Assembly (NCBI RefSeq): GCF_003461245.1
Contig: NZ_QTWS01000017.1
Location: 19,204-83,203 of the forward strand
Length of the DNA: 64,000 bases
Direction: 5' to 3'
Source: Blautia sp. AF19-10LB
GTDB taxonomy: Bacteria > Bacillota > Clostridia > Lachnospirales > Lachnospiraceae
Shown: one piece after another, positions 44,621 through 59,858 of the stretch
Layout of the letters: every line of letters begins with the position of its first letter
Position numbering within the stretch: position 1 is the stretch's first letter
The notes under the pieces: generated by a model
What the model was told of the DNA's origin: nothing
Seen by the model: the letters and a program-made list of their open reading frames with translations, nothing else
The model's database searches: none
Program-made: the position numbers and the translations under genes

Positions 44621-45550
44621 ATGAAAGTTCTGGAAATCATATCGCCGGTACTGGTGATGATCATTCTTGGTATTTTATGCCGGAAATGGAAACTGCTGAA
44701 CAAGAACGGCATCGACAACATGAAAGCATTGGTCACAAACATCATGCTTCCGGTAGCAATTTTTCATGCACTGGCGACATCAGATTATGGAGCAGAAACG
44801 GCGAAACTGGTCGGGATCATGTTTATCATGCTTGTGGTATCTTTCAGTATCGGATTTCTTATGAAACCGCTCATGACCGAAAATTACCGCAAGTATCTGC
44901 CATTTATGGTCAGTGTGTATGAGGGCGGTTCGATGGCATATCCTCTGTACACAAGTCTCTGCGGACAGGAAAACCTGTCACAGATCGCAGTTCTTGATAT
45001 TGCGGGACTGCTTTTTGGATTCAGTATTTATATGGGAATGCTTGGACAGACCGAGAACGGTGAGAAGATCAATGTAAAAAATCTTGCAGTAAGCGCAGTA
45101 AAAACACCGGCATTTATCGCGAGTGTTCTGGGAATCATTGCGGGATTGACAGGCGTGATCAAACTTCTGCTTGCAAGCCCGGCAGGCGGGATTTATACAA
45201 GCGTGGAAAGTATTCTGACCACAGCTCTGACAGCGATCATCCTGATCGTGGTAGGTTTCAGCATGGAACTGACACCGGAACTTTTTGGTCCGTGTATCCG
45301 GACGATCGTGATGCGTATTGCTTTGCAGGCAGTTATGATCGTGGGTGTTCTCCTGGCGGTACATAGTTTTATCGGAAGTAATACACTGCTGGATCTTGCG
45401 GTGATCACCTATATGTCTGCACCGGCTACGTTCAGTATGCAGACTTTCCTCAAGAGAGAAGATGGAAGTGCGTATGTATCCACGACAAATTCACTGTATT
45501 GTATTGTGTCGATCGTGGTGTATATGATCCTTGCGTTTTTTACATATTAA
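44621..45550 (+). CDS. AEC (auxin efflux carrier)-family transporter
   Basis: A 309-residue membrane protein with about ten helices in two halves. It begins ISPVLVMIILGILCRKWKLLNKNGID and contains TNIMLPVAIFHAL, MAYPLYTSLCG and the C-terminal APATFSMQTFLKRE, all typical of the AEC family (Mem_trans). Bacterial members move organic acids such as malate or other small anions across the membrane; the substrate is not predictable. AGGAAG precedes the ATG. Its last bases and terminator reappear in altered form at 59761-59858. Confidence 0.9.
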   Translation: MKVLEIISPVLVMIILGILCRKWKLLNKNGIDNMKALVTNIMLPVAIFHALATSDYGAETAKLVGIMFIMLVVSFSIGFLMKPLMTENYRKYLPFMVSVYEGGSMAYPLYTSLCGQENLSQIAVLDIAGLLFGFSIYMGMLGQTENGEKINVKNLAVSAVKTPAFIASVLGIIAGLTGVIKLLLASPAGGIYTSVESILTTALTAIILIVVGFSMELTPELFGPCIRTIVMRIALQAVMIVGVLLAVHSFIGSNTLLDLAVITYMSAPATFSMQTFLKREDGSAYVSTTNSLYCIVSIVVYMILAFFTY

Positions 45551-45620
45551 AATAGAGAATACTTATAAACAAGTGCCATACGGAGCAAGAAAACCGTATG
45601 GCACTTGTTATATATATTGT
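45531..45620 (+). repeat. Left flanking direct repeat: 3' end of AEC gene plus terminator
   Basis: From TTGCGTTTTTTACATATTAA (45531-45550) through TAGAGAATA and the AAGTGCCATACGG/CCGTATGGCACTT hairpin (stem arms 45571-45583 and 45594-45606), this stretch aligns with 59761-59858. Most bases match, with one insertion of about 15 bp in the right copy. The hairpin followed by GTTATATAT is also the AEC terminator. Confidence 0.7.
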
Positions 45621-45679
45621 ATATAGTGAAAAAATAAGCTGAATATTACCGGCAAATGGAAGGAATCGCAATACCGAAC

Positions 45680-45856
45680 TCAGGCAGAATGGGGCATGCC
45701 GGAAGCAGGAAGAGGATTCTTGGAAGAAATCTGAAGTGAGGCATAAGCCTGTGCGACATCTGTGACAGTTATGTGTTCCAGTTTTTGAAGAAAGGCAGAG
45801 GAATCCTTTTGACTGGAGCTGAGATAGAGTAACTGATGAAATATATCAAATGTCAT
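45680..45856 (-). CDS. Small hypothetical protein (58 aa)
   Basis: A 58-residue minus-strand open frame starting MTFDIFHQLLYLSSSQKDSS. It has a strong ribosome site (AAGGAGG, 6 bases before the ATG) and ends GMPHSA before TGA. No membrane helix or known motif is seen; two amphipathic helices are likely. It is divergent from the AraC-type regulator gene and shares its intergenic region with the repeated AATAACGC sites, so it may be the regulator's target. It could also be the start of a longer, truncated gene. Confidence 0.5.
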   Translation of the reverse strand: MTFDIFHQLLYLSSSQKDSSAFLQKLEHITVTDVAQAYASLQISSKNPLPASGMPHSA

Positions 45857-45926
45857 AGCGATCCTCCTTTTTGAATGATGGTGAATAAGCAATCGTGTAT
45901 AAAGTGAAATCTAACGTTTTTATAAT

Positions 45927-45988
45927 AATAACGCTTATAACATAAGAAAAAAATAGAAATAACGCCATATATATGGTAAAATAACGCC
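45927..45988 (+). promoter_or_regulatory. Repeated AATAACGC sites upstream of the AraC-type regulator
   Basis: AATAACGC occurs at 45927-45934, 45958-45965 and 45980-45987. The last two extend to AAATAACGCCA and are 22 bp apart, two helical turns, as expected for direct-repeat half-sites of an AraC-family dimer. Confidence 0.45.
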
Positions 45989-46014
45989 AGAATAAATTAA
46001 ACTGGAGTGAGAAA

Positions 46015-46944
46015 ATGTTACTGGAAGATCTGATTATCACAGACACAAGCAAAGAAAATATGTTTGAATTACAGGAAAATTATCCATGCTGCAGCAGAGA
46101 TATGGTCATAACAGCGGGGAACAGCCGGGTTGTTCCCTGGCACTGGCATGAGGAACTGGAGATTCTTTATGTCCGAGAAGGGGAAATAGATTACTGGACA
46201 GCAGGAAACTGCATCCGTCTCAGGAAATCGGATGGTATTTTTATTAACACAAACGTGATGCATCAGGTGATTTTTCCGCAGGAAATGGAGGATGCCGGAA
46301 GCCAGGTCTTTATGTTCCGACCGGAATTTCTGGCAGAAGAAGGCAGCCTTTTACATAAAAAATATATCTGCCCTGTTTTGTATGATCACAAATTTCAGGC
46401 GGCGGTGCTGCGTCGAGAAAGTGAAATGCAGAGAAAAGTGCTGGAAGATATGCTGGAAATGGATCGAATCCAGGACAAAAAGGCATTCGGATATGAGATG
46501 GCATTTCGCAATAAGATAGCAGAGATGTGGATAGATTTTATCCACATGTTAGGCGTGGAACCGGAAACTGCCAAACTTCGTACTTCAGAAAAAGAAGAAC
46601 GTCTCAAAGAAATGCTGGCCTTTATTCATAAAGAATACAGAAATGAAATTTCCCTGAGCGATATTGCAGACGCTGCGAAAGTAAGCAAAAGAGAAGCACT
46701 TCGATGTTTTCAGGAAGAAATCCATATTTCACCGGGTGCTTATCTCAAAGACTACCGCCTGCAGATGGCGTGTACCATGCTGAGAAATACCTCTGAGACG
46801 ATCACGACAGTTTCTCAGAACTGCGGCTTTCATTCTGCCAGCTATTTCGGCAAAGTTTTCCGCAGCCAGATGGGATGTACACCGTATGAATTTAAGAATA
46901 AGACCGGAACCGGAAACAGAGAGGGAATTTCTGAAAAAAATTAG
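46015..46944 (+). CDS. AraC-family transcriptional regulator
   Basis: A 309-residue regulator. The N-terminal half is a cupin ligand-binding domain (VPWHWHEELEILYVREGEIDY, then MHQVIFP). The C-terminal 100 residues are the double helix-turn-helix domain (ISLSDIADAAKVSKREALRCFQE and TTVSQNCGFHSASYFGKVFRSQMGCTPYEF). Such proteins sense small molecules such as sugars or acids and activate nearby genes. TGGAGTGAG precedes the ATG. It is divergent from the 58-residue protein gene and convergent to the thiolase operon. It lies inside the repeat-flanked module, so it is a second candidate regulator beside the LacI protein. Confidence 0.92.
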   Translation: MLLEDLIITDTSKENMFELQENYPCCSRDMVITAGNSRVVPWHWHEELEILYVREGEIDYWTAGNCIRLRKSDGIFINTNVMHQVIFPQEMEDAGSQVFMFRPEFLAEEGSLLHKKYICPVLYDHKFQAAVLRRESEMQRKVLEDMLEMDRIQDKKAFGYEMAFRNKIAEMWIDFIHMLGVEPETAKLRTSEKEERLKEMLAFIHKEYRNEISLSDIADAAKVSKREALRCFQEEIHISPGAYLKDYRLQMACTMLRNTSETITTVSQNCGFHSASYFGKVFRSQMGCTPYEFKNKTGTGNREGISEKN

Positions 46945-47042
46945 TTTCCGGAAGATATTGTAGAACGTAATATGAAATTTGTGTCAGTTCTGTTATCAGA
47001 AACTACCACATTTATGTAGAGAACTGTACTGTCAGGGGCAAC

Positions 47043-47090
47043 AAAAAAGAGGCTGCCGCCTGGAAATGTCCAGTGCAACAGCCTCTTTTC
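47043..47090. terminator. Bidirectional terminator between the AraC gene and the thiolase operon
   Basis: AAAAGAGGCTG and CAGCCTCTTTT form an 11-bp stem with a 24-base loop, with A-rich and T-rich flanks. It serves the plus-strand regulator gene and the minus-strand operon. Confidence 0.8.
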
Positions 47091-47133
47091 TTTGTAGGAA
47101 TTTATCTGTGTAAAAAGGGGACGATTAAGAAGT

Positions 47134-48312
47134 TTAACATTTGGTGAAGTACATGGAGATACCCTGTCCGCCGCCAATGCACATACTGATCATGGCATCC
47201 TTCTTATCTGTTCTCATTAATTCATAGAGAACTTTTACGGTAAGCACACATCCGGTCGCACCGATTGGATGTCCAATGGAAATACCACCACCATAGATGT
47301 TTACTTTGTCTTTGTCAAGACCAAGGTCTCTTCTTACGGCATAAGCCTGGCTTGCAAATGCTTCGTTGATTTCAAACATATCAATATCTTTCAGATTGAT
47401 GTCGAGTTTTGATGCCAGCTTTTCACTGGAGAATTTTGGGGAGTAACCCATCAGTTCAGCATCGAAACCTGCTACTGCAAAATCAACAATTTTCAGTTTA
47501 GGAGTAACACCAAGTTCTTTTGCCTTGTCAGCAGACATAATTACAACTGCAGCTGCACCATCGTTAAGACTTGAAGAGTTGCCGGCGGTAACAGTGCCAC
47601 CTTTTACGAAACAAGGACGGAGTTTTGCCAGCTTTTCAAGAGTCTGACCTTCTCTTGGACCTTCATCTGTATCAAAAACAGTCACATTACCTTTTCGGTC
47701 TTTTAATTCAACCGGGAGAATTTCATCTTTGAATTTTCCCGCTTTGATAGCTGCCACAGCACGCTGATGACTTTCAAGAGCGAATTCGTCCTGTTCTTCT
47801 CTGGTTACATTATATTTTGATGCCACGTTTTCTGCGGTCACACCATTATGTTTTCCATCCAATGGCCAGGTCAGAATATCAATGACTCCATCCTCGAATG
47901 TTTTGTGACCCATACGTGCGCCCCAGCGGGCATCTTTTACATAATACGGAAGCTGAGAAATATTCTCTGCACCTCCGGCAACTACAACATCAGCCTGTCC
48001 AGTCTGGATTTCCATAACAGCATCTGCAATGGACTGAAGGGAAGAACCACACTGTCTGTTTACAGAATAAGCAGTTGTTTCTTTTGGCATGCCGGCTTTC
48101 AGACTGATCGCTCTTGCTACAAATCCATTTTCTGCAATCTGTCCTACCTGTCCGATGATAACCTCATCAACATCTGACAGCTGGATTCCTGCGCGGTTAA
48201 CTGCTTCTTTTACAACCATAGCTCCCATGTCAATAGCAGAAATACTTTTCAGGCTGCCACCGTAACTTCCTACAGGGAGACGTACACCACTTACAATTAC
48301 TACATCTTTCAT
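47134..48312 (-). CDS. Acetyl-CoA C-acetyltransferase (thiolase)
   Basis: A 392-residue thiolase that cleaves 3-ketoacyl-CoA with CoA (or condenses two acetyl-CoA). The active-site Cys is in NRQCGSSLQSI near residue 88, the His in NEAFASQAYA and GGGISIGHPIGATG near residue 350, and the second Cys in MCIGGGQGIS near the C-terminus. The N-terminus (MKDVVIVSGVRLPVGSYGGS) is typical of the biosynthetic/AtoB type. The frame is open upstream to 48369, but GGAGG with 8-base spacing selects 48312. It is the last gene of the four-gene minus-strand operon. Here the degradative direction is inferred from its partners. Confidence 0.95.
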   Translation of the reverse strand: MKDVVIVSGVRLPVGSYGGSLKSISAIDMGAMVVKEAVNRAGIQLSDVDEVIIGQVGQIAENGFVARAISLKAGMPKETTAYSVNRQCGSSLQSIADAVMEIQTGQADVVVAGGAENISQLPYYVKDARWGARMGHKTFEDGVIDILTWPLDGKHNGVTAENVASKYNVTREEQDEFALESHQRAVAAIKAGKFKDEILPVELKDRKGNVTVFDTDEGPREGQTLEKLAKLRPCFVKGGTVTAGNSSSLNDGAAAVVIMSADKAKELGVTPKLKIVDFAVAGFDAELMGYSPKFSSEKLASKLDINLKDIDMFEINEAFASQAYAVRRDLGLDKDKVNIYGGGISIGHPIGATGCVLTVKVLYELMRTDKKDAMISMCIGGGQGISMYFTKC

Positions 48313-48365
48313 TTTGAGTTCCTCCATATTTTTTATGACATAAATCAGCTGAAATTTTGACTTGC

Positions 48366-49109
48366 TCAAACGATCATTCCACCACCGACATTGATAACTT
48401 CTGAGGTGATATAGGCAGCCTCATCAGATGCAAGAAAGGCAACCATATTTCCTACGTCAGAAGGTTTACCTGCATATCCCATAGGGATTCTCTGCATCAT
48501 GCTGTCCCATGCGGCTCCATCATTTACTTCTTTCAGTTTAAGAGTCATATCGGTTTCAATGAATCCAGGGCAGATGGCATTGCATGTGATGCCTTTGCGG
48601 GCACTTTCTCGTGCGGCGGTTTTAGTGAGACCTACAACGCCTGCTTTGGCAGCGGCGTAATTAGCCTGTCCGATATTTCCAAGCCAGCTTCCGGAAGAAA
48701 TATTGATAATACGTCCGCTTCCCTGAGCACGCATGTGTTTCAGAGCTTCCTGGGTACCAAAGAATACGCCTGTAAGATCGACATCAATTACCATCTGCCA
48801 GTTTTCTACAGGCATTTTGTGAAGCATGCCATCACGGTTGATACCTGCATTGTTTACCATAATATCCAGCGTTCCATAAGTGTCAATGGCGTATTTTACC
48901 AGTGCATGTACTTCTTCCTGTTTGGAAACGTTTACAGCAAAAGCCGAAGCTGTCCCCCCTTTTGCAACGATTTCCGCAACTGTATCATCAGCAGGTGCCA
49001 TATCAGCGACAACTACTTTTGCACCTTCTTCTGCGAGTTTCATGGCAATTCCTTTTCCCAGACCACGTCCGGAACCTGTTACAATTGCTACTTTGTCTTT
49101 TAATCTCAT
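48366..49109 (-). CDS. Short-chain dehydrogenase/reductase (3-oxoacyl/acetoacetyl-CoA reductase-like)
   Basis: A 247-residue SDR. The NAD(P) motif is TGSGRGLGKGIA at about residues 11-22, NNAG near residue 87, catalytic Ser in INISSGSWLG, and YAAAK (Tyr-x-x-x-Lys) near residue 151. Overall it resembles FabG and PhaB-type acetoacetyl-CoA reductases. Next to a thiolase it would interconvert 3-hydroxyacyl-CoA and 3-ketoacyl-CoA. In this context oxidation of a (3R)-hydroxyacyl-CoA is the likely direction (inference). TAGGAGG precedes the ATG. Cofactor preference (NADP or NAD) cannot be settled by eye. Confidence 0.92.
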   Translation of the reverse strand: MRLKDKVAIVTGSGRGLGKGIAMKLAEEGAKVVVADMAPADDTVAEIVAKGGTASAFAVNVSKQEEVHALVKYAIDTYGTLDIMVNNAGINRDGMLHKMPVENWQMVIDVDLTGVFFGTQEALKHMRAQGSGRIINISSGSWLGNIGQANYAAAKAGVVGLTKTAARESARKGITCNAICPGFIETDMTLKLKEVNDGAAWDSMMQRIPMGYAGKPSDVGNMVAFLASDEAAYITSEVINVGGGMIV

Positions 49110-49148
49110 GATATAATCCTCCTAAATGATTTTTTTATGTTAAAAATT

Positions 49149-50732
49149 TTAATGGTTACGAATGATATCTTTCAGTCCGTAGGGTATTGCTTCAGAGAAA
49201 ATTGCCGGATTCATTTCTTTCAGATTTTCACTGATGATTGGTTTGAATTCCATCAGATCAAGAACCTGGGTCTGAAGGTCAATGCCAGGGGCAATTTCTG
49301 TAAGCACAAGTCCTTCTGGTCTGAGTTCAAATACAGCACGTTCTGTGATATAATGCATTTTCTGATGTTTTTCTCTGGCTATTTTTCCATTATAGGAAAT
49401 CTGTTGTACTTTATTTACAAATTTGATAAGACTGCCTTCTTTATTGATATGAAGCTGACCATTCTCAAACGAGCAGTCGAGACCCTTCCCTGTAAAAGAA
49501 GAGCAGAAGACAACATGTTTGGCATTGGTTGTTATATCGATAAAACCACCGGCTCCGGTAGGATTTGGACCGAGTCTGGTTGCATTGACATTTCCGTCCG
49601 GGTCAATTTCACCGGCACCCATGTAGGTGACATCTACGCCGGCACCATTATAGTAGTCAAACTGGTCATCGTGTCTTAAGAGTGCAAAATTGTTTTTGGC
49701 GATACCAAAATCAATACCACCCATAGGAATACCACCGTAAATACCTGATTCTACAGTGACAGTTACATCGTCGCCAACACCTTCTTCGGAGATGATCGGG
49801 CCGACAACATCATTGGGAATACCAGTTCCTACATTCAGTACATCGTTAACCTGAAGTTCCATGAGAGCACGTCGTCCAATGACTTTGCGGAGGTTCATAG
49901 GAAGTGCATCAGAATCGGAAACAGGAACTTTGATGTCTCCACAGTAGGCAGGATCAAATGCAAAACTGTGTGTCTGACGATGATCCTCTTCTGGATTCGG
50001 ACACATAACAACTGCGTCAATAAAGATTCCCGGAACAGTAACTCGCTTGCAGTGAAGAGTACCGGATTTTACTTTATATTTTGCCTGGGCGATAACTTTG
50101 CCGCCGAATTTCTTGCAGGCCATAACAGCGGAAAATACTTCCAGCTGCATTGCTTCTTCATCTGTGGTGAGGTTTCCCATTTCATCTACATAAGTTCCCC
50201 GGATAATACAGTAATCAAGTGGAATTGGCTTATAGCGCATGTATTCTTCACCATCAATTGTGACAACATCTACAATATCGGGTGCGTCTTTTGTAATGGC
50301 ATTCATTTTTCCACCATCAATACGCGGATCAATAAAAGTTCCAAGACCTACTTTGGTGATTTTTCCAGGTTCACCTCCTGCCATACTGCGGTACAGCTGA
50401 GCGAACTGTCCCTGAGGGATACAGTAGGCAAGGATTTTATTTTCTGAGATAAGTTTCATCATACGTGGCTGCAGACCCCAGTGTCCTCCGATGATACGGT
50501 ACAGCATTTCTTCATGTGAGAAATGCTGTATACCTCTGTCACGGTCGCTCTGTCCACAGGAGTGAACCAGTGTCAGATGGTTGGGACTTCCTGTTTCAAG
50601 GAAACGCTTTTCGATAGCTTTCAGAATAGTTTCAGATGCAGAAACCAGGGTCATGCCTATTGTTGCAATGGTACTGTCATCTTTTATCATAGCTGCGGCT
50701 TCTTCGCCGGTTACAAATTTTGGCTTTTTCAT
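49149..50732 (-). CDS. Acyl-CoA:carboxylate CoA-transferase (family I, fused subunits)
   Basis: A 527-residue CoA-transferase of the propionate/acetate CoA-transferase (Pct/YdiF) kind, with the alpha and beta halves fused. The catalytic Glu lies in VTVESGIYGGIPMGG near residue 325. The N-terminal region has the GTFIDPRIDGGKMN segment, and LNVGTGIPNDV opens the second half. It would move CoA from acetyl-CoA or another donor to a free carboxylic acid. CAGGAGG precedes the ATG. In this operon it offers a second way, beside the ligase, to activate the substrate or to recycle CoA. Confidence 0.92.
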   Translation of the reverse strand: MKKPKFVTGEEAAAMIKDDSTIATIGMTLVSASETILKAIEKRFLETGSPNHLTLVHSCGQSDRDRGIQHFSHEEMLYRIIGGHWGLQPRMMKLISENKILAYCIPQGQFAQLYRSMAGGEPGKITKVGLGTFIDPRIDGGKMNAITKDAPDIVDVVTIDGEEYMRYKPIPLDYCIIRGTYVDEMGNLTTDEEAMQLEVFSAVMACKKFGGKVIAQAKYKVKSGTLHCKRVTVPGIFIDAVVMCPNPEEDHRQTHSFAFDPAYCGDIKVPVSDSDALPMNLRKVIGRRALMELQVNDVLNVGTGIPNDVVGPIISEEGVGDDVTVTVESGIYGGIPMGGIDFGIAKNNFALLRHDDQFDYYNGAGVDVTYMGAGEIDPDGNVNATRLGPNPTGAGGFIDITTNAKHVVFCSSFTGKGLDCSFENGQLHINKEGSLIKFVNKVQQISYNGKIAREKHQKMHYITERAVFELRPEGLVLTEIAPGIDLQTQVLDLMEFKPIISENLKEMNPAIFSEAIPYGLKDIIRNH

Positions 50733-50757
50733 AATGTCCTCCTGTCATAGTGGTGCT

Positions 50758-52344
50758 TCAGAACATTTTCCGAATAGCACGTTTGTCTATCTTACCGTTA
50801 GGGGTAAGGGGAATTTCATCAGTAATGAGAATTCGCTTTGGAATTTTGTATTTTGCAATTTTTTTGTGCAGAAGTGCCTGGATTTTAGGTTCGTCCAGAT
50901 CACTTCCGGGACCAAGTTTTACAAGAGCCGCTGCGACTTCGCCGTAAACATCGTCCGGAATACCTACAACAGCTGCCTCATTTACTCCTTTTAACTTATA
51001 AATTTCATTTTCTACATCAAAGCTGCAGATTTTTTCACCTCCTCGGTTAATCATATCTTTTTTGCGATCCACTACGAACAGATAACCTTTTTCATTAAAA
51101 TATCCTAGATCTCCGGTTCCAAGCCATCCATCCTTCAGGGAAGGAGTATCTGTTTTATAGTAGGAAGTAAGTACCACATTGCCATGAATCCATATTTCTC
51201 CAATCTGACCGTCTTTCAGTGGGGCGCCATTGTCATCGCGTATTTCAAAAACAGTTCCGGGAACCGGAAAACCGGAAGAACCGATATAAGGACTGGTACT
51301 CGCATCACCAGGAAAAATAGTGGCTGGAGAGGTTGTTTCTGTCAGTCCATATACTGTATGAAAAACAGAATGAGGAAGCCAGTTGTGTATGGCGGTGAGT
51401 TTTTCTTTCGGCATGTTACTGCTTCCGCATGCAAACTGTTTCAGCGTCGGAAGAGATGGAAATAAATCTTTTTCTTCCAGAAGCATGGAAAAGACTGTAG
51501 GTGATGCGTGAAGAAAAGTAATATTATGCTCTTTTACACACTGAAGCACCCGCCTGGCATTAAATATTTTGTGTAAATATAAGGTTCCTCCGCAATGTAT
51601 GAACAGACCGAGTAGTGCAACCATTCCTGTAACGTGATAAATAGGTATGGGAATCACTGAAATGTCGTCAGCTGTGATGTTTAGGATTTTCTGATAAGTA
51701 GCTACTGCATTCATAATATTGTAGTTTTTGATCACAACGCCCTTGCTTTGAGAAGTTGTTCCCGATGTGAACATGATGATTGCGTCATCAAAGGAATCAT
51801 GGCAGACCGGACTTTCAGTTTCAGGAGAATGATAAGTAGCCAGTCCATAGCCTTTTTCAATATCAGAACAGGCGATGCGTCGAATTCCCTGAGTTTCAAA
51901 ATCTTCAAACCATTTATAGAAATCCTGATCGCAGATGATACAGCTCACATCAGCTTTTTCTACTAACGAGGATACTTCTTGCTTTTTGTATTTACTTGGG
52001 AGTGGAATAGTGACAGCGCCAAGTTTTAACAAAGCAAGAAACGATACACAGAATTCCAGACAGTTATACATCATCAGAGCAACGTGACTATTCCTGTGAA
52101 TATTCTGCTTTTGGTACAGATAAGAAGCAAAAGCGTCTGTCTTTGCCAGCAGATCTGTATAGGTACAGGAACGGTCATAATTGTCTACAATCGCTGTTTT
52201 GTCTGGAAACGACTGCGCTGTCTTACATAAAGCATCATACAGTGTTGTGGGAAGGCTGGTATAACATAGAATATCTGAACCAGGATTTAATGGTTCTAAT
52301 TGAAAATCGACCAACCCTTTCCATTTGTCTGTTCCAGAAAGCAT
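50758..52344 (-). CDS. Acyl-CoA ligase, ANL adenylate-forming superfamily
   Basis: A 528-residue acyl-CoA synthetase. The AMP-binding P-loop is IIMFTSGTTSQSKGV near residue 190, A5 is YGLTETTS near 337, and the hinge region is GTGDLGYFNEKGYLFVVDRKKDMINRGGEKI. The catalytic Lys lies in PLTPNGKIDKRAI at the C-terminus. It would activate a carboxylic acid with ATP and CoA; chain preference is unknown. AAGGAGG lies 8 bases before the ATG. It is the first gene of the minus-strand operon behind a good promoter and the first LacI-type operator. Confidence 0.92.
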   Translation of the reverse strand: MLSGTDKWKGLVDFQLEPLNPGSDILCYTSLPTTLYDALCKTAQSFPDKTAIVDNYDRSCTYTDLLAKTDAFASYLYQKQNIHRNSHVALMMYNCLEFCVSFLALLKLGAVTIPLPSKYKKQEVSSLVEKADVSCIICDQDFYKWFEDFETQGIRRIACSDIEKGYGLATYHSPETESPVCHDSFDDAIIMFTSGTTSQSKGVVIKNYNIMNAVATYQKILNITADDISVIPIPIYHVTGMVALLGLFIHCGGTLYLHKIFNARRVLQCVKEHNITFLHASPTVFSMLLEEKDLFPSLPTLKQFACGSSNMPKEKLTAIHNWLPHSVFHTVYGLTETTSPATIFPGDASTSPYIGSSGFPVPGTVFEIRDDNGAPLKDGQIGEIWIHGNVVLTSYYKTDTPSLKDGWLGTGDLGYFNEKGYLFVVDRKKDMINRGGEKICSFDVENEIYKLKGVNEAAVVGIPDDVYGEVAAALVKLGPGSDLDEPKIQALLHKKIAKYKIPKRILITDEIPLTPNGKIDKRAIRKMF

Positions 52345-52361: not shown

Positions 52362-52379
52362 AAGAAAACGGTTTCGCTT
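52362..52379 (-). promoter_or_regulatory. LacI-type operator O1 at the acyl-CoA ligase promoter
   Basis: AAGAAAACGGTTTCGCTT is an imperfect palindrome centred on CG, matching the sites at 52535-52550 and 52581-52596. It lies just downstream of the predicted minus-strand transcription start, where a bound repressor would block elongation. Confidence 0.65.
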
Positions 52380-52416: not shown

Positions 52417-52491
52417 TATGGAAAACATGCACAAAATAACCAAAAAATATTTGGTAAACAGGACGAATACGATAAAAAAGTATAAAAACTA

Positions 52492-52520: not shown

Positions 52521-52534
52521 CTGGTTATCAAAAC

Positions 52535-52550
52535 AAGAAACCGTTTTCTA
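52535..52550 (+). promoter_or_regulatory. LacI-type operator O2
   Basis: AAGAAACCGTTTTCTA is a near-palindrome around CG. It sits 14 bp after the -10 of the lactonase promoter. Confidence 0.65.
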
Positions 52551-52580
52551 AACAAAATTTTAGAAAAATGGAATCTTACT

Positions 52581-52596
52581 AAGAAAACGTTATCTT
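52581..52596 (+). promoter_or_regulatory. LacI-type operator O3
   Basis: AAGAAAACGTTATCTT is a 16-bp palindrome with one mismatch per arm pair. It is centred 46 bp from O2 and lies directly before the ribosome site of the lactonase gene. Confidence 0.6.
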
Positions 52597-52615
52597 AAAT
52601 AAAGGAGGTATTAGG

Positions 52616-53359
52616 ATGGCAAAATGGACAGTGCGGGCTATTCAGGTAGGAAGTATTGATCTGGATCGTTCAGCTATGACACATTTTAAAGGAAAAGGTG
52701 AACGTATTACAGTTCCGATCTGGTGTGCAGGGGCGACAGATGGAATACATAAGGTGATTGTAGATACGGGAATTCGTGATCTCGAAGAATACAGAAAAGC
52801 GGAACCTGGAGTAAAACAGACACCAGATCAGGTTACAACAGCTGCAATTAAGAGAGTCATGGGATGGGAACCTGATGACATTGATATTGTTATCAACACA
52901 CATCTTCACTGTGACCATAGCGGAAGTAACAGAGAATTTAAAAATGCTAAGTTCTACGTTCAGAAAAAAGAGTGGGAAGCTGCATTTAATCCTCTTGTGC
53001 CGGAGGCGCCTTTCTACGATAAACTTTGCTACGACAAGAATGCAGTTAATTATTTCCAGTGGAATTTCCTTGAGGGAGATACAGAAATCCTGCCAGGACT
53101 GAGAGTGATTACAACGCCAGGACATACAAGAGGACATCAGTCAGTAATGTTTGACACAAAGGACGGAGTTGTATGTGTTTCAGGTGATATCTGTAATGTG
53201 GCAGAAAATGTAAATGGTAATCTGGAGCCGAATATCGTGGTAATGGTTCCGGAAACATATGAAAGCTTTGAACGCATCCGACAGTTTGCACATTATATTC
53301 TGCCAGGACATGAACCGGCTATTGAGGATGGTTCTGACAAGTTTATAGCTGTTTTATAA
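52616..53359 (+). CDS. MBL-fold hydrolase resembling N-acyl homoserine lactonases
   Basis: A 247-residue metallo-beta-lactamase-fold enzyme with the two-zinc motif NTHLHCDHSGSN near residue 98. Further ligands are in TTPGHTRGHQSVMF, SGDICN (Asp) and ILPGHEPA. The spacing and the N-terminal region (IPVPIWCAGA-like stretch and VDTGI) match AHL-lactonase family proteins, which open lactone rings; many relatives have other ester or lactone substrates. AAAGGAGG precedes the ATG. It heads the plus-strand operon next to an ABC importer, so it may act on the imported compound. No signal peptide is present, so it is cytoplasmic. Confidence 0.85.
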   Translation: MAKWTVRAIQVGSIDLDRSAMTHFKGKGERITVPIWCAGATDGIHKVIVDTGIRDLEEYRKAEPGVKQTPDQVTTAAIKRVMGWEPDDIDIVINTHLHCDHSGSNREFKNAKFYVQKKEWEAAFNPLVPEAPFYDKLCYDKNAVNYFQWNFLEGDTEILPGLRVITTPGHTRGHQSVMFDTKDGVVCVSGDICNVAENVNGNLEPNIVVMVPETYESFERIRQFAHYILPGHEPAIEDGSDKFIAVL

Positions 53360-53417
53360 GAATATCTATTAGGGGAAAATAAAACTATACAAAACTATAT
53401 AATAAGGAGAAAACAAT

Positions 53418-54542
53418 ATGAAAAAAAGAGCATTGGCAATCGTTATGGCAGGTTTAATGGCAGTATCTATGAGCAGCGTATGTGCATATGCAAAAGACGA
53501 AGAAAAAGAAGCGAAAACAGAAGGATTCTACATTGGTCTGTCAAATGGTTACTGGGGAAATACCTGGCGTGCACAGATGGTAGAGGATTTTGAAAACAAG
53601 GCAGAAGAATATAAAGAAGAAGGTATTATTTCTGATTATATGATCTCCAACTCAAACAGTGACGCAACAGAGCAGCTGAACCAGATAAATGCAATGATCG
53701 ATTCAGGAGTTGATGCAATTCTTATTGATGCGGTATCTCCTACAACAATTAAATCCGCAGTTGAGAAAGCAAAAGCAAAAGGAATTCTCGTAGTGATTGC
53801 AAATGACCCGGCAGCTTATGAAGATACGATCTGTGTCTGTGGAGATAATTATACATGGCAGAAGATCCAGGCAATGTGGCTGATGGAACAGATCGAAGGA
53901 AAAGGCGATATCGTAAAGATTACTGGTGTATCTGGTAATGCGGCAGATACTATTCGTGAGCAGGCTAATGATGATATTCTGGCAGAATATCCAGATGTAA
54001 ATGTTCTTACTTCCGCACCTGGAAACTGGTCACAGACAGATGCACAGTCCGTTATGACGACATTTTTATCAAGCTACGACAGTATTGATGCGATTCTTGA
54101 ACAGGACGTAATGGCAGAAGGTGTTATCAAAGCATATGAAAATGCCGGTAAAGATATCCCGGTTATGACAGGAGATTACACAAAATCCTTCTTTGCAAAA
54201 TGGGCAGAAATGGAAGATCTTAATACAATTGGTGTTCCGTATGCACCAGGTAATGCAACTGTAGCACTTGAGGTAGCTGTGAGATTGCTTCAGGGAAAAG
54301 AAATCGATGAGGCTAATTTAGTTGCAAATCCAATGGATGAAAATCTGATTAATACAGTCATGGTAGCCCCGCCGTACGTTGTTACCAAGGAAGCACAGCC
54401 GGACGCTACGTGGATGGAAGGACTGGAAAATACAGAAGCTATTTCACTGGATGAAGCAATGGAACTGTTAAAAGATTCAGCTGATACGGCTGCATTAGAC
54501 GGTTATATGTCAGACGAAGCTGTCGACAAATTATTCAAATAA
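53418..54542 (+). CDS. Ribose-type ABC importer, substrate-binding protein
   Basis: A 374-residue extracytoplasmic binding protein of the Peripla_BP_4 (ribose/xylose) class. It has a signal sequence of about 25 residues (MKKRALAIVMAGLMAVSMSS then VCAYA). The mature protein has FYIGLSNGYWGNTWRAQM and a repeated IDSGVDAILIDAVSPTTIKSAVEKAKAKGI domain. The Cys in the leader is not in a good lipobox (VC preceded by SS), so this may be a freely secreted or signal-peptidase-I-processed protein, which is unusual for a Gram-positive SBP. TAAGGAG precedes the ATG. It is followed by a hairpin and the ATPase gene. Confidence 0.88.
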   Translation: MKKRALAIVMAGLMAVSMSSVCAYAKDEEKEAKTEGFYIGLSNGYWGNTWRAQMVEDFENKAEEYKEEGIISDYMISNSNSDATEQLNQINAMIDSGVDAILIDAVSPTTIKSAVEKAKAKGILVVIANDPAAYEDTICVCGDNYTWQKIQAMWLMEQIEGKGDIVKITGVSGNAADTIREQANDDILAEYPDVNVLTSAPGNWSQTDAQSVMTTFLSSYDSIDAILEQDVMAEGVIKAYENAGKDIPVMTGDYTKSFFAKWAEMEDLNTIGVPYAPGNATVALEVAVRLLQGKEIDEANLVANPMDENLINTVMVAPPYVVTKEAQPDATWMEGLENTEAISLDEAMELLKDSADTAALDGYMSDEAVDKLFK

Positions 54543-54554
54543 AGAAACCGTATT

Positions 54555-54597
54555 CAGGGACTGGCGGTAGTTGATGCCTCCGCCAGTCCTGTTTTTA
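54555..54597 (+). terminator. Hairpin between the binding protein and ATPase genes (attenuator)
   Basis: GGACTGGCGG (54558-54567) pairs with CCGCCAGTCC (54580-54589), extended by CAG/CTG with a bulge, and is followed by TTTTT. Partial termination here would yield more binding protein than membrane components. A degenerate operator-like AAGAAACCGTATTC lies just before it at 54542-54555. Confidence 0.7.
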
Positions 54598-54625
54598 ATA
54601 TAGACAGGATACAGGAGGAGGCAAT

Positions 54626-56116
54626 ATGGGGCTTATTTTTCAAAATATATCAAAAAAATATGGTGCTGTTGTAGCAATAAAACACGCTGAAATGGAAATT
54701 GAAAATGGAGAAGTCAGGGCTATTTTAGGTGGAAATGGATCTGGAAAGTCGACACTGGCAAAAGCTCTGGGTGGACTGATAAGTAAAAATTCCGGAGAAA
54801 TTATTTTTGACGGACAATCGATTGATTTCAAATCACCGAAAGAAGCGAAAAAAAATCATGTAATAATGACAAGCCAGGAACTGAGTCTGTTCGGAAATCT
54901 GACGGTAGAAGAAAATATCTGCATATGTGACGTACCTTTAAAAGGCATTTTTACAGATAAAAAAAGAATTAAAGAAAAGTCGCTGGAAATTTTAAAGGTG
55001 ATGAAATTAGAAAACATTGCGACAAAAAAAGTAGAAGATCTTGCACCAAACCAGCAGTATATGGTAGAACTTGCCAAAGCACTGGTTCAGGAACCAAAAC
55101 TTCTTATTATTGATGAGATCACGTCAGCTTTATACAGAGAAGATGTAGAAATCGTTGATGATATTATAAAAGATCTGAAGAAAAAGGGATGTATGGTTTT
55201 ATTTATTTCGCATCGTATGTCAGAATTATATGCTATGTGTGACAGTGTCACGATTATGAAAAACGGAGAGACCCTCGGTACTTATCCGATGCAGGAAAAA
55301 ACGGAAAGTGAGTTACTTTCTCTGATGGTAGGATCAAAAGTAGAGACTGGCAGACAACATAAAAACCGTCAGGCAAAGAGTGAAAAAGATATATTGATCA
55401 AAGCACCACACATAAAAATTCCTTCCTATGGAACAGAGGAAAGTCTGGAGATCAGAAAGGGAGAGATTATAGGTGTTGCAGGACTGCAGGGACATGGTCA
55501 GACCGATCTTGTCAATTCGCTGTATGGTAACCTGGGAGAAATAAAAATCATCATCGATGGCAAAGAGGTTTCTATTCATAATTCCAGACAGGCAGTTTCA
55601 AATGGATTTGCATTTATTTCCGGCGACAGGGAACGGGATGGAACATTCCAGGAGCGTAATCTGGCTGAGAATCTTGCAGCAGTGAAAGAACTGGTCAAGC
55701 ATGAAAAAATCGGTGATTCCAGGTCTGTTCTGGACAGCTTTAATGTTAAATACGATAATCCGGGACAGCTGATTACTGCATTGAGCGGTGGTAACCAGCA
55801 GAAAGTTGTTGTAGGACGGTGGTTAAGCACAAAGCCGCGGCTTCTTCTGGCAAATGACCCTACAAAAGGTATTGATGTTAAAGCAAGAACAGATCTTCAT
55901 AAAGAGTTTGTGAAACTTGCAGAAGAGGGAAATGCGGTAATCATGATTTCCAGTGATGATGATGAGCTGGTAAATGTTACATCTATGGCAGAATGTTCAA
56001 GGGTTATTGTTATGTATGAAGGGCATATTTCTGCAATTCTTGAGGGCGATGCTATTACAAGAGAGAACATTTCGGCGGCATCTATGCCGATTGAAGAAAA
56101 ACAAATGCAGGCATAA
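54626..56116 (+). CDS. Ribose-type ABC importer ATPase (two fused nucleotide-binding domains)
   Basis: A 496-residue RbsA/MglA-like ATPase. The first domain has Walker A GGNGSGKST near residue 35 and Walker B LLIIDEITSAL. Its signature is altered (DLAPNQQYMVELAKAL in place of LSVGQ). The second domain has the degenerate Walker A of this family (AGLQGHGQTDL) and a normal signature LSGGNQQKVVVGRWL. CAGGAGGAGG precedes the ATG. It works with the two permeases encoded next. The class imports pentoses, hexoses, autoinducer-2 and related polar molecules. Confidence 0.93.
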   Translation: MGLIFQNISKKYGAVVAIKHAEMEIENGEVRAILGGNGSGKSTLAKALGGLISKNSGEIIFDGQSIDFKSPKEAKKNHVIMTSQELSLFGNLTVEENICICDVPLKGIFTDKKRIKEKSLEILKVMKLENIATKKVEDLAPNQQYMVELAKALVQEPKLLIIDEITSALYREDVEIVDDIIKDLKKKGCMVLFISHRMSELYAMCDSVTIMKNGETLGTYPMQEKTESELLSLMVGSKVETGRQHKNRQAKSEKDILIKAPHIKIPSYGTEESLEIRKGEIIGVAGLQGHGQTDLVNSLYGNLGEIKIIIDGKEVSIHNSRQAVSNGFAFISGDRERDGTFQERNLAENLAAVKELVKHEKIGDSRSVLDSFNVKYDNPGQLITALSGGNQQKVVVGRWLSTKPRLLLANDPTKGIDVKARTDLHKEFVKLAEEGNAVIMISSDDDELVNVTSMAECSRVIVMYEGHISAILEGDAITRENISAASMPIEEKQMQA

Positions 56117-56137
56117 TTGAAAGGAGGATAAAATCAG

Positions 56138-57112
56138 ATGAACAAAGTAAAGAAACTGATGTCATGGAATGCATTTCCGGCATTATTATTGTTTGTAATA
56201 TTTCTTGGGATTAATGGAGTAATGACAGGTGGACTGAGTGTATCTTTTTTTCGATCCTTCATTTCCACTAATGCAGGTGCGATTTGTGTGGCAATCGGTG
56301 TAACTGCTACGATTCTTGTTGCAGGTACTGATATTTCTCTTGGTTCGATCGTGTCGCTGGTAAATGTGGTTATTGTTACTGCTTTTGAGAAAGGATTTTC
56401 TGTACCGCAGGCTGCATTGCTGGGGCTGTTGACTGCAGTTCTGTGTGGAATGTTCAATGGTTTTGTTGTAGGCATCATGAGAGTTAATCCGCTGCTGGCA
56501 ACATTTGCAACATCAATTGCATTTGCAGGAATTGCATTATGGATTTTGCCATATCCTGGTGGCTATATTGATTTCACTTTTGGTGACTGGTATCTGGGAA
56601 ATATGTTTGGTATTATTCCGACGCCGGTAGTATTGATAGCCATTCTTGTACTTATATGGATATTTGTAATGAAATTACCTGTGGGATTGCATATTTATGC
56701 GTTGGGTAAAGATGTAAAGAAGGCGTATGCATCAGGAATAAATGTTGCTGCGTTAAGATTTTTTGTGCATACATTTGCCGGTCTGGCGGCAGGAGTTGCC
56801 GGTATTTGTATAAGTGCCAATATATGTGCCGGAAGTCCGACAGTAGGATCTGCCATGAGTATGAATTCTATCGCAGCGGCAGTTATCGGCGGTGTTTCTC
56901 TGAATGGAGGAATCGGAGGAATATGGAGTGGTATTTTCGGCGCCTCTTTCCTGAGTATTCTGATTTCTATTGTCGTATCTGCAAATTTAAGTTCTATAGT
57001 ACAGAGCTTTATACAGGGACTGATCCTGCTGATTGGAGTTACAGTGTCTATTGCAGCATCAGATAAAGAAATCAAAACAAAAATAAAGAGAGCTATAGGA
57101 GGAAAGAGATGA
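56138..57112 (+). CDS. Ribose-type ABC importer permease 1
   Basis: A 324-residue BPD_transp_2 (RbsC-type) permease with about nine hydrophobic helices. It has the ATILVAGTDISLGSIVSL segment and the motif AAVIGGVSLNGGIGG with GAVSxL-like GIFGASFLSIL, which are the family signatures. GGAGG precedes the ATG by 12 bases. It overlaps the second permease by four bases (ATGA), so a heterodimeric channel is likely. Confidence 0.92.
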   Translation: MNKVKKLMSWNAFPALLLFVIFLGINGVMTGGLSVSFFRSFISTNAGAICVAIGVTATILVAGTDISLGSIVSLVNVVIVTAFEKGFSVPQAALLGLLTAVLCGMFNGFVVGIMRVNPLLATFATSIAFAGIALWILPYPGGYIDFTFGDWYLGNMFGIIPTPVVLIAILVLIWIFVMKLPVGLHIYALGKDVKKAYASGINVAALRFFVHTFAGLAAGVAGICISANICAGSPTVGSAMSMNSIAAAVIGGVSLNGGIGGIWSGIFGASFLSILISIVVSANLSSIVQSFIQGLILLIGVTVSIAASDKEIKTKIKRAIGGKR

Positions 57113-58065
57113 AAACACTGAAAAAGCTTAACAATCCATATCTTCCGGCAATTATAGGAACGGTTGCTCTTTTAATTCTTGGACAGTGTCTGAGCAAAGG
57201 TTTTCTGTCTATGAATAATATTTCAAGTATTTTGATGACAACGTCAATTCTTACACTTGCGTCAATTGGCCAGGCAGCGGTAATCATATCAGGTGACAGT
57301 GGGCTTGACATGTCTGTTGGTGCAATCATGTCTATGACAGCTCTCTTTGGTCCAATGATAAATGTAGGATCTGGCGTAGCCTCATTTATTTTAATGATTC
57401 CTGCTGTTATGCTTATGGGAGCTGTTGTCGGCGCAATTAATGGCACCGGAGTTCAAATGTTAAAGGTTGTTCCGCTGGTTATGACGCTGATTATGTCAAA
57501 TGTTGTAGATGGCTTTTCAATCATGGTTACAAAAGGGCAGCCATCTGTTATGGTAGGAAAGGAATTACAGGGAATCTCAAAAACATTAGTAGGTCCACTG
57601 AGAATCCTGCCAACAGTAGTGCTCATTGTTTTGATCTTACTGGAAGTTCTGTTCCTGAGAAGAAGCCGCTATGGAAGAAGTCTGTTTCTGGCAGGTAATA
57701 ATAGAAATGCGGCAAATCTCTGTGGTATCAACAGTAAAAAGATAATTATCCTGGCGTATGTGTTTGGTGGAGCTATGGCGGGATTTGCAGGGCTTATGCT
57801 GGTTGGATATGCAGGAACGGCACAGATGAATATGGCAAGCAGCTATACAATGCTTTCTGTTGCAGCAGTAGTTATTGGTGGAACCAAACTGACAGGTGGA
57901 AAAGGTACATTCATTGGAGGTGCTCTTGGTGCTTTGGTGCTGGTACTTATTACAAATATTCTTCAGGCATTAAATATGGCCGCAGGATTAAGATCTCTGA
58001 TCCAGGGAATTATTCTGATCGTGATTCTGATGATGAACAGCAGAGCACCTAAGCTTCGACAGTAA
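57109..58065 (+). CDS. Ribose-type ABC importer permease 2
   Basis: A 318-residue RbsC-type permease. It has the AAVIISGDSGLDMSVGAIMS segment, FLRRSRYGRSLFLAGNNRNAANLCGI (the cytoplasmic EAA-like coupling loop) and VAAVVIGGTKLTGGKGT. It pairs with permease 1; importers with two different permeases in this class include LsrCD (autoinducer-2). GGAGG precedes the ATG. The LacI gene follows after 78 bp. Confidence 0.92.
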   Translation: MKTLKKLNNPYLPAIIGTVALLILGQCLSKGFLSMNNISSILMTTSILTLASIGQAAVIISGDSGLDMSVGAIMSMTALFGPMINVGSGVASFILMIPAVMLMGAVVGAINGTGVQMLKVVPLVMTLIMSNVVDGFSIMVTKGQPSVMVGKELQGISKTLVGPLRILPTVVLIVLILLEVLFLRRSRYGRSLFLAGNNRNAANLCGINSKKIIILAYVFGGAMAGFAGLMLVGYAGTAQMNMASSYTMLSVAAVVIGGTKLTGGKGTFIGGALGALVLVLITNILQALNMAAGLRSLIQGIILIVILMMNSRAPKLRQ

Positions 58066-58143
58066 TGATAAATATTATTACCAGAATATCTATTGCGAAA
58101 AGAAAGTGCATGATGTAAAATTGAAGAGAAAAGGAGAAAATGC

Positions 58144-59160
58144 ATGAAGAATGGAAAGTATGGCATTTCAGATGTTGCAGAGATGTTAGGCGTTTCAAAA
58201 TCAACAGTTTCTCGCGTAATCAATGGAAATGAAGGTGTCGGTCCGGAACTTCGTAAAAAAGTGATGGACTTTATCAATGAAATAGGATATCAGCCAAATA
58301 CGATAGCCCAGAGTTTAAGTAAGGGACGGATGAACATAGTGGCATTGATACTGGGAGATATTCGAAATCCGTTTTATGCAGATTTGACATTTAATATTCA
58401 GAGGATTCTTAACGACAATGGTTATATGGTAATGGTTCTGAACAGTGAATATAACATTGATAGAGAACTGGAATTTTTGAAATTAACAGAGCAATTTAAT
58501 TTTGCAGGTTTGATTTTGATAACGGCACAGGAAAAAGCAATAGAAGAGAGACTGAAAAATATGGAAATGCCAAAGGTGCTTGTTAATCGTATTCTACCAT
58601 ATTATACAGGAGATTCGGTGTTAATTGATAATTTTCAGGCAGGATATCAGGCAACTATGCATCTGATTGAACTGGGACACCGTCACATAGGCTTTATCAA
58701 AGGACCGGGGGTATCTTCTGCATCCAGTCAGCGCTTTGCAGGTTACCGACAGGTACTTGAGAATTATGGCTTTTCTTTTGATGAGAAATGTGTGTTTGAG
58801 AGCGATCTGAAATTAGAAACAGGACGGGCGCTGGCACAGCAATTTTTAGAAATAAAAGAGCGTCCAAGTGCGATGGTTGTGGTAAACGATATGACTGCAA
58901 TCGGTTTTATGGATGGCTGCAGGAAAGCGGGAATCCGTATTCCTGAAGAGTTGTCAATCATAAGTTTTGATGATATTGCAATGGCGTCAATGTATGGTAT
59001 CGAACTGACGACGATAAGCCAGCATGTAGATGAAATGGGTGAAAAAGCAGCACATTTGATGTTGAAACAGTTAAATGACAAAGATGCGAAAACAGAGCGT
59101 ATTATTATGGAGCCAACTTTGATTGTAAGAAAAACAACCTGTGAATGTTCTGAGATTTGA
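58144..59160 (+). CDS. LacI-family repressor, likely regulator of the catabolic module
   Basis: A 338-residue LacI/GalR regulator. The N-terminal helix-turn-helix is ISDVAEMLGVSKSTVSRVINGNEGV with the hinge YQPNTIAQSLSKGRM. The C-terminal periplasmic-binding-like ligand domain has VALILGDIRNPFYADLTF and SIISFDDIAMASMYGIELTTI. AGGAG lies 7 bases before the ATG. It sits in the same operon as the importer. The three operators in the divergent promoter region have the LacI-type CG-centred shape, so this protein is their natural candidate ligand. The inducer would be the imported substrate or a pathway intermediate. Confidence 0.95.
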   Translation: MKNGKYGISDVAEMLGVSKSTVSRVINGNEGVGPELRKKVMDFINEIGYQPNTIAQSLSKGRMNIVALILGDIRNPFYADLTFNIQRILNDNGYMVMVLNSEYNIDRELEFLKLTEQFNFAGLILITAQEKAIEERLKNMEMPKVLVNRILPYYTGDSVLIDNFQAGYQATMHLIELGHRHIGFIKGPGVSSASSQRFAGYRQVLENYGFSFDEKCVFESDLKLETGRALAQQFLEIKERPSAMVVVNDMTAIGFMDGCRKAGIRIPEELSIISFDDIAMASMYGIELTTISQHVDEMGEKAAHLMLKQLNDKDAKTERIIMEPTLIVRKTTCECSEI

Positions 59161-59229
59161 AAAGTTTGCCAGTTGGAGAGATTCACTGGCGGCAGTTTGC
59201 AAATTCTATATGGAAAGTGGTGGAAATAA

Positions 59230-59703
59230 GTGCATAGAATGAAACGGGTAGAGGATTCCCGTACGGAGAATACATTTCTGATCATGAATAAACATATCAA
59301 CTGTTATGGACGTCTCTTTGGTGGAGTGCTGATGCAGTGGATTGATGAGATGGCGGGGATTGTAGCTCGCCGTCATGCCGGTACGATTGTTACAACAGCC
59401 TGTGTAGATAACCTGAATTTTAAAGCAGGTGCTTATCTGGGAGATGTGGTTGTGCTGATCGGAAAACTGACCTATGTAGGCAGGACCTCTATGGAAGTAC
59501 GAATTGATACTTATGTGGAGGAGTCGGATGGAACACGCAGGATGATTAACAGAGCTTATGAAGTTATGGTGGCATTGGATGAGGACGACAACAAAGTGGA
59601 CGTACCGGGTCTTATCGTAGAGACAGAGTCTGAAAAGGCAGAATGGGAAGGCGGAGAAAAGCGATATACACTACGGAAGGAAAGGCGAAGAGAAGGATAC
59701 TGA
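59230..59703 (+). CDS. Acyl-CoA thioesterase, hotdog fold (YciA/BACH-like)
   Basis: A 157-residue hotdog-fold thioesterase of the YciA/cytosolic acyl-CoA hydrolase type. It has MNKHINCYGRLFGGVLMQWIDEMAGIVARRHAG, with the catalytic Asp region, and ACVDNLNFKAGAYLGDVVVL. It would release CoA from acyl-CoAs, perhaps to protect the CoA pool of the pathway. The GTG at 59230 has GGTGG 6 bases upstream; the ATG at 59239 is 15 bases away and less likely. It is the last gene of the module, followed by a perfect terminator. Confidence 0.9.
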   Translation: MHRMKRVEDSRTENTFLIMNKHINCYGRLFGGVLMQWIDEMAGIVARRHAGTIVTTACVDNLNFKAGAYLGDVVVLIGKLTYVGRTSMEVRIDTYVEESDGTRRMINRAYEVMVALDEDDNKVDVPGLIVETESEKAEWEGGEKRYTLRKERRREGY

Positions 59704-59711
59704 TGTTAATG

Positions 59712-59760
59712 AAGCCTGAGGCTATCTATCATATTATGGCAGATAGCCTCAGGCTTGTTC
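59712..59760 (+). terminator. Strong terminator at the right end of the module
   Basis: AAGCCTGAGGCTATCT (59712-59727) and AGATAGCCTCAGGCTT (59741-59756) are perfectly complementary over 16 bp with a 13-base loop, then GTTC. Confidence 0.85.
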
Positions 59761-59858
59761 TTGCATTTTTACATATTAAAATAGAGAATATAGAATATAG
59801 CAATTATAAGTAAGTGTCATACAGAGCAGTAGAAAATCGTATGGCACTTTTATTGTAT
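59761..59858 (+). repeat. Right flanking direct repeat of the AEC 3' end and terminator
   Basis: TTGCATTTTTACATATTAA, TAGAGAATA and AAGTGTCATAC...CGTATGGCACTT align in the same order and orientation with 45531-45620. There is an extra block of about 15 bp (near 59791-59807) and a few substitutions that the stem partly compensates with G-U pairs. No AEC gene precedes this copy; only the terminal part is present. Confidence 0.7.

What the first reader, a model, noticed from the sequence alone, without database searches (positions are those of the whole stretch)
45531..59858. Complete catabolic module bracketed by direct repeats of the AEC gene's end
The terminal 20 bases of the AEC gene plus its terminator (45531-45620) recur at 59761-59858 in the same orientation. 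TTGC(A/G)TTTTT(T)ACATATTAA, TAGAGAATA and the AAGTGYCATAC/CGTATGGCACTT arms match, and one copy has an extra block of about 15 bp. Everything between forms one functional unit: two divergent operons, two regulators and terminators at both ends. This fits insertion or exchange at the AEC terminator. The repeats are seen directly; the transfer event is inferred. No integrase is present, so homologous or site-specific capture by another element would be needed.
Basis: partly seen in the sequence, partly recalled or inferred. Interest (0 to 1): 0.7.

Follow-up and report, generated by a model that had tools for sequence, protein, structure and literature searches.

The report
Catabolic gene block swapped between Blautia
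A Blautia-like gut bacterium carries a 14-kilobase block of genes, predicted to break down sugar acids, at a spot where two close relatives have none, and the mixed ancestry of the genes on both sides suggests that the block is swapped by ordinary DNA recombination rather than by mobility genes of its own.

Summary
The repeat is real. The AEC 3' end plus hairpin (45531-45612) recurs at 59761-59855, 70 of 81 aligned bases identical. The predicted empty site exists: Blautia sp. MSJ-19 (L001) and Marseille-P3087 (L002) have AEC, one hairpin, then gamma carbonic anhydrase (gCA), no module. The hairpin pattern occurs in 2 of 64 genus genomes, one place each, both at AEC.

Added: (1) Flanks are mosaic. 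The window is 2.5-2.6% from its sister L001 around tsf and in AEC 5', but 8.9% in AEC 3' and 13.3% in gCA, about as far as from L002. This suggests exchange of the whole block by homologous recombination in its neighbours; how the repeat arose stays open. L002 keeps about 100 bp of the module's left edge, so it probably lost an insert. (2) The ten-gene core sits at another place in one other Lachnospiraceae genome (67-89% aa); its ligase/CoA-transferase/dehydrogenase/thiolase genes have the order of a Klebsiella cluster built like the published deoxyribonate one. Predicted function: catabolism of a deoxyribonate-like lactone.

The parts
44621..45550 (+). AEC-family transporter (Mem_trans); its last 0.2 kb lies in the left recombination arm
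   Evidence: Pfam PF03547; change point 45344/45346
45531..45612 (+). left repeat: AEC 3' end and terminator hairpin
45607..45707 (.). about 100 bp inside the left repeat, also present in module-free L002 (91%)
45680..45856 (-). small ORF, 58 aa; only its 3' tail remains in L002
   Evidence: 13 homologues
46015..46944 (+). AraC-family regulator, accessory to the core
   Evidence: no match in the 29 kb around the G103 core; best 44% in 397 family genomes (at most 5 candidates scored per genome)
47134..48312 (-). thiolase (BktB-like)
   Evidence: 53.6% to the thiolase of the Klebsiella cluster
48366..49109 (-). SDR dehydrogenase (FabG-like)
49149..50732 (-). CoA-transferase (YdiF-like)
   Evidence: 58.7% to the CoA-transferase of the Klebsiella cluster
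50758..52344 (-). acyl-CoA ligase (AMP-binding)
52364..52375 (.). LacI-type operator-like site
   Evidence: equivalent in L037
52537..52548 (.). LacI-type operator-like site
52583..52594 (.). LacI-type operator-like site, one mismatch
52616..53359 (+). metallo-beta-lactamase-fold enzyme, predicted lactonase
53418..54542 (+). ribose-type solute-binding protein
54626..56116 (+). ABC ATPase (two cassettes)
56138..57112 (+). ABC permease 1
57109..58065 (+). ABC permease 2
58144..59160 (+). LacI-family regulator
   Evidence: 74% in L036
59230..59703 (+). acyl-CoA thioesterase (4HBT), accessory; 87% relative at an unrelated place in G002, 58% on another contig of G103
59712..59756 (+). terminator hairpin after the thioesterase
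   Evidence: (-32.2 kcal/mol for 59705-59770)
59761..59855 (+). right repeat: decayed AEC 3' end and hairpin
59888..60843 (.). right recombination arm: gCA (59961-60464) into the GNAT gene
   Evidence: change point 60843/60852, reached by 0 of 5000 permutations with MATE included, 104 of 5000 without

Best explanation
An accessory catabolic block sits between two genes, AEC and gCA, that are neighbours in the close relatives, and is gained and lost among these closely related Blautia as one allele, by double homologous recombination in those genes. The repeats are probably a relic of how the block first landed beside AEC in some earlier lineage (a duplicated AEC end); they are not needed for transfer now. 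The core imports a sugar-acid lactone by a ribose-type ABC transporter, opens it with a metallo-lactonase, activates it to a CoA ester (ligase or CoA-transferase), oxidises the 3-hydroxyl (SDR) and cleaves it with thiolase to acetyl-CoA plus a shorter acyl-CoA; 2-deoxyribonate or its lactone is the leading substrate. LacI represses both divergent operons from shared operators. Shown: repeats, empty sites, mosaic flanks, a core conserved in one other genome, operator-like sites. Inferred: that recombination moved the block, its direction, the donor, the origin of the repeat, the substrate, the regulation.
For: Empty sites in L001 and L002. The lactonase has no close relative in any of the 64 genus genomes (16 of 64 have distant matches, best 39%). 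Affinity to sister L001 is lost on both sides: AEC change point 45344/45346 (20 of 5000 permutations as strong), right change point 60843/60852 (0 of 5000); distances to L001 2.6% in AEC 5', 8.9% AEC 3', 13.3% gCA, 5.2% GNAT, 7.1% MATE. Published precedent for integrase-free hotspots exchanged through flanking core genes: PMC5635113, passages read, one from the abstract. Function: the core is conserved in order at another locus in G103, with three equivalent operator-like sites. In the plasmid collection the top three of 634 records for the CoA-transferase are Klebsiella pneumoniae at 58.5-58.7%, the next 45.1% (10 listed); the same three records head the 1556 for the thiolase at 53.3-53.7%, the next 50.3% (60 listed). 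Two of them show the same four-gene order. K. michiganensis genetics assign a cluster of this composition and locus-tag order to deoxyribonate (PMC6365646, passages and section 13 read).
Against: Only two close relatives are available, and the pattern cannot say whether the window or L001 is the recombinant. A further change point lies at 39180/39231, in the gene before tsf (6 of 5000), so the neighbourhood is mosaic beyond this site; the gCA-GNAT stretch tested alone is weaker (104 of 5000). gCA may simply evolve fast. The neighbours are not genus-wide core genes: AEC at E <= 1e-60 in 10 of 64 genomes, gCA DNA in 8 of 64, and their adjacency was seen only in these three genomes. No donor with both module and matching flanks was found. 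The window holds no match to the Klebsiella glycerate kinase, SMP-30 lactonase or MFS transporters, so the substrate need not be the same. The ligase is only 38% identical to the Klebsiella one. Rows are ranked by coverage times identity; 2 of the 1556 thiolase records have a place at 60-80% identity that is not among the 60 listed, so Klebsiella is not shown to be the closest by identity alone. No K. michiganensis sequence was compared.
Confidence: 0.58

Rival explanations
1. CIME-like remnant: the repeats are attL and attR of a site-specific element that integrated at the 3' end of AEC and lost, or borrowed, its integrase.
For: Direct repeats of about 85 bp beginning 20 bases before the AEC end, AEC left intact, single target copy in two relatives.
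Against: No recombinase family among the 12 larger genes between the repeats; copies only 70 of 81 identical; the site motif gave 0 exact hits in viral contigs; L002 shares about 100 bp inside the left repeat; the change points lie outside the repeats.
Confidence: 0.17
2. The block is old in this small clade and was lost in L001 and L002, by deletion or by replacement with an empty allele; the window is native.
For: L002 keeps a 100-bp remnant with the tail of the small ORF, which is full length in six of the seven homologues read; the left repeat is almost identical to L002 (78 of 80); the pattern at the left does not exclude L001 as the recombinant.
Against: No close lactonase relative in any of 64 genus genomes, so at least one gain is needed; on the right the window, not L001, is the most distinct (13.3 and 14.0% against 11.1%).
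Confidence: 0.2
3. The second repeat arose by local duplication or end-joining during an illegitimate insertion, with no role for recombination of flanks.
For: The right copy starts directly behind the thioesterase terminator, and about 20 bp of AEC coding sequence is all that remains.
Against: Does not explain the mosaic flanks.
Confidence: 0.1
4. The repeats are a common dispersed terminator and mean nothing.
For: Both copies fold as hairpins.
Against: The homology includes AEC coding sequence; hairpin pattern in 2 of 64 genus genomes, one place each; empty sites exist.
Confidence: 0.02

Closest known systems
Integrase-free HGT hotspots exchanged by homologous recombination in flanking core genes (Oliveira et al. 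2017, PMC5635113, passages read)
   Same: Accessory block between genes shared with relatives, no mobility gene recognised inside, incongruent flanks
   Different: Three genomes only; the neighbours are not core across the genus; a direct repeat of the neighbour's 3' end is not mentioned in the passages read
CIME, an element without integration or transfer genes that keeps attL and attR (PMC5704250, passages read)
   Same: Direct repeats including a gene's 3' end, no integrase recognised
   Different: No partner element or recombinase found; repeats diverged; the tract extends beyond the repeats
Deoxyribonate cluster of Klebsiella michiganensis (PMC6365646, section 13 and passages read)
   Same: Ligase, CoA-transferase, dehydrogenase, thiolase, in the same order in K. 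pneumoniae relatives, plus a lactonase
   Different: ABC transporter in place of MFS transporters, metallo-lactonase in place of SMP-30 type, no glycerate kinase in the window
AiiA-type AHL lactonases
   Same: Metallo-beta-lactamase fold; best solved-structure matches by sequence
   Different: 126.5 bits against an AiiA cut-off of 375; sits in a catabolic cluster

Membership tests
Hotspot exchanged by flanking homologous recombination | Same flanking genes with and without the block in relatives | tested here: met
Hotspot exchanged by flanking homologous recombination | Incongruent ancestry of the flanking genes | tested here: met
   three genomes only, and one further change point at 39180/39231
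Hotspot exchanged by flanking homologous recombination | Flanking genes are core genes | tested here: inconclusive
   present in 3 of 3 close genomes but AEC in 10 of 64 and gCA in 8 of 64 genus genomes; the species' own core is unknown
Hotspot exchanged by flanking homologous recombination | A donor carrying block and matching flanks | tested here: inconclusive
CIME | attL and attR direct repeats including a gene end | tested here: inconclusive
   repeats present, 70 of 81 identical; recombination at them not shown
CIME | Related element with an integrase of the same specificity | tested here: inconclusive
   motif 0 exact hits in viral contigs; not surveyed more widely
Deoxyribonate CoA-pathway cluster | Ligase, CoA-transferase, dehydrogenase, thiolase together, homologous and in the same order | tested here: met
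   against the K. pneumoniae cluster: 38, 59, 55, 54% identity; K. michiganensis sequences not compared
Deoxyribonate CoA-pathway cluster | Glycerate kinase in the cluster | tested here: not met
   no match in the window; rest of the genome not held
Deoxyribonate CoA-pathway cluster | Growth on deoxyribonate requires the genes | not testable with these tools
   needs experiment
AiiA AHL lactonase | Curated family score | tested here: not met
   126.5 bits, cut-off 375

The most novel reading that the evidence does not exclude
A gut Lachnospiraceae version of the CoA-bound deoxyribonate pathway (ribose-type ABC importer, metallo-lactonase, LacI control) travels as an exchangeable allele at one chromosomal junction among Blautia, without any mobility gene, so strains differ in use of an oxidised DNA-sugar product.
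Probability: 0.33. Interest if true: 0.55.

Novelty: new variant of a known kind. Interest (0 to 1): 0.42.

Why it matters
If true, it is a concrete, testable case in gut Firmicutes of a whole catabolic pathway exchanged by homologous recombination in its neighbours, and it assigns a probable substrate class to a cluster that domain names alone would suggest is for fatty acids or quorum quenching. Searches of the held library: deoxyribonate with Lachnospiraceae gave two papers with one mention each, listing only seen; deoxyribonate, lactonase, thiolase and CoA-transferase gave 36 papers holding at least three of the four terms, 10 listed, of which passages of two were read. I saw no report of such a cluster in Lachnospiraceae there, which is a limited search.

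Tried and rejected
A dispersed terminator was rejected. A phage origin had no support: neither the site motif nor the lactonase (13 stretches matched a pattern, none encodes a relative) was found in viral contigs. Precise excision between the repeats as the origin of L002 was rejected, because L002 keeps sequence interior to the left repeat. Base composition did not set the module apart: 37-45% GC in 1-kb steps from 46 to 59 kb, 34-47% in the rest of 36-64 kb. Ketone-body and AHL-lactone catabolism were considered; the Klebsiella gene order made deoxyribonate the better lead. The small-ORF search in 397 family genomes found nothing, but the tool notes that without a positive control an empty answer shows nothing. 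AraC homologue contig lengths did not link AraC to the small ORF or to the lactonase. A 100-bp piece of L002 over its junction matched the window only at the two flanks and, best elsewhere, over 15 bp (E 0.005). Metabolite papers on deoxyribonic acid in the gut were listed, not read; a Blautia recombination search gave 18 papers, 8 listed, none read. Structure prediction was not run.

The family and order samples hold 397 and 392 genomes drawn from larger groups, so rarity is a statement about samples. The inside/outside comparison (39 of 127 informative sites shared with L001 inside, 294 of 449 outside) used boundaries chosen after looking; the permutation scans are the fairer test.
Full report
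OBSERVATION. The left copy holds the last 20 bases of AEC, with its stop, and a hairpin; the right copy lies directly behind the thioesterase terminator. Without gap columns they agree at 70 of 81 bases. The local score of left against right is 81; the best of 3094 scores of the right copy against other window tiles, both strands, is 34. The right copy has lost one T, so it is not a usable AEC end, and its hairpin is weaker.

EMPTY SITES. One scan of genome contigs with AEC gave five loci. In two, Blautia sp. MSJ-19 (L001) and Marseille-P3087 (L002), AEC is followed by one hairpin and then gCA, GNAT and MATE as in the window, without the module. The other three have AEC at 72-76% identity and no gCA match in the stretch held. 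Neither MSJ-19 (G001) nor P3087 (G002) has any lactonase relative at E <= 0.001. The hairpin pattern occurs at one place in each of these two genomes and in none of the other 62 genus genomes (exact arms only).

WHERE THE EXCHANGE HAPPENED. Around tsf and in AEC 5' the window is 2.5-2.6% from L001 and 6.4-6.9% from L002, so L001 is the sister. In AEC 3' (45361-45550) it is 8.9% from L001 and 7.9% from L002; in gCA 13.3% and 14.0%; in GNAT 5.2% and 7.6%; in MATE 7.1% and 14.8%. Permutation scans place change points at 45344/45346 (20 of 5000 as strong) and 60843/60852 (0 of 5000). Against a simple story: the scan of the tsf region plus AEC found its strongest break at 39180/39231, in the gene before tsf (6 of 5000), so this neighbourhood is generally mosaic, and gCA-GNAT tested alone is weaker (104 of 5000). 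AEC (10 of 64) and gCA (8 of 64) are not core across the genus. I read the flanks as arms of homologous recombination; which of window and L001 received foreign DNA is not settled.

THE REPEAT AND L002. The left copy matches L002 at 78 of 80 bases, and the next 101 bp, inside the module's left edge, match L002 at 91%. In L002 this ends inside the small ORF, which has 13 homologues; of seven read, six are full length with the same kind of C-terminus and one is frame-shifted. L002 therefore probably carried at least the left part of the insert and lost it, though the small ORF could also be an old neighbour of AEC. How the duplicate AEC end was first made is not resolved: site-specific integration, end-joining and local duplication all remain.

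THE MODULE. The core is thiolase, SDR, CoA-transferase and ligase on the minus strand, and lactonase, binding protein, ATPase, two permeases and LacI on the plus strand. All ten occur in the same order in G103 at 67-89% identity, beside other genes (ORFs). AraC and the thioesterase did not match in those 29 kb (E <= 1e-10); thioesterase relatives lie at unrelated places in G002 (87%) and G103 (58%). One of 397 family genomes, one of 392 order genomes and one of 4 in its genus have the lactonase at 80%, each time G103. The divergent promoter holds three operator-like sites, two of them exact matches to GAAAACGNTTTC, with three equivalents in G103; single-mismatch matches also occur elsewhere in the window.

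FUNCTION. Searching plasmid records, ranked by coverage times identity, the CoA-transferase found 634 records: three Klebsiella pneumoniae records at 58.5-58.7%, then 45.1% (10 listed). The thiolase found 1556 records, the same three on top at 53.3-53.7%, then 50.3%; two records have a place at 60-80% identity that is not among the 60 listed. In the two records opened, the genes run ligase, CoA-transferase, FabG, thiolase, MFS, SMP-30 lactonase, MFS, glycerate kinase, in one of them with an IS3-type transposase gene between thiolase and MFS. That is the composition, and by locus-tag numbers the order, reported for the K. [quoted passage not shown] The window has the first four in the same order (38, 59, 55 and 54% identity) plus a lactonase of another fold and a ribose-type importer. 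A related 3-hydroxy sugar acid is possible, and no glycerate kinase match lies in the window.

VERDICT. A real, accessory block, present here and absent in two close relatives; the transfer mechanism best fits a published model (PMC5635113, passages); the pathway is probably a new variant of a known one. The CIME definition was taken from passages of PMC5704250.

Noticed in passing
window 61263-62367: IS605-type TnpB (OrfB) carried in two overlapping frames between GNAT and MATE; no match at this place in L001 and L002.
   Followed up: partly
window 40847-43249: 800-aa protein with nine DUF4379 treble-clef zinc-finger stretches; no match in the held stretches of L001 and L002.
   Followed up: no
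L001 8503-9840: A second MATE-like gene (36%) lies before AEC in L001, so the tsf-AEC interval is variable too.
   Followed up: no
window about 39180-39231: A further change in affinity to L001 in the gene before tsf, suggesting another recombination tract.
   Followed up: no
window 45680-45856: 58-aa ORF with 13 homologues at 79-98% identity in public assemblies and no Pfam domain listed for them.
   Followed up: partly
L060 5305-5778: Thioesterase relative (87%) in Marseille-P3087 at an unrelated place; none found in MSJ-19.
   Followed up: partly
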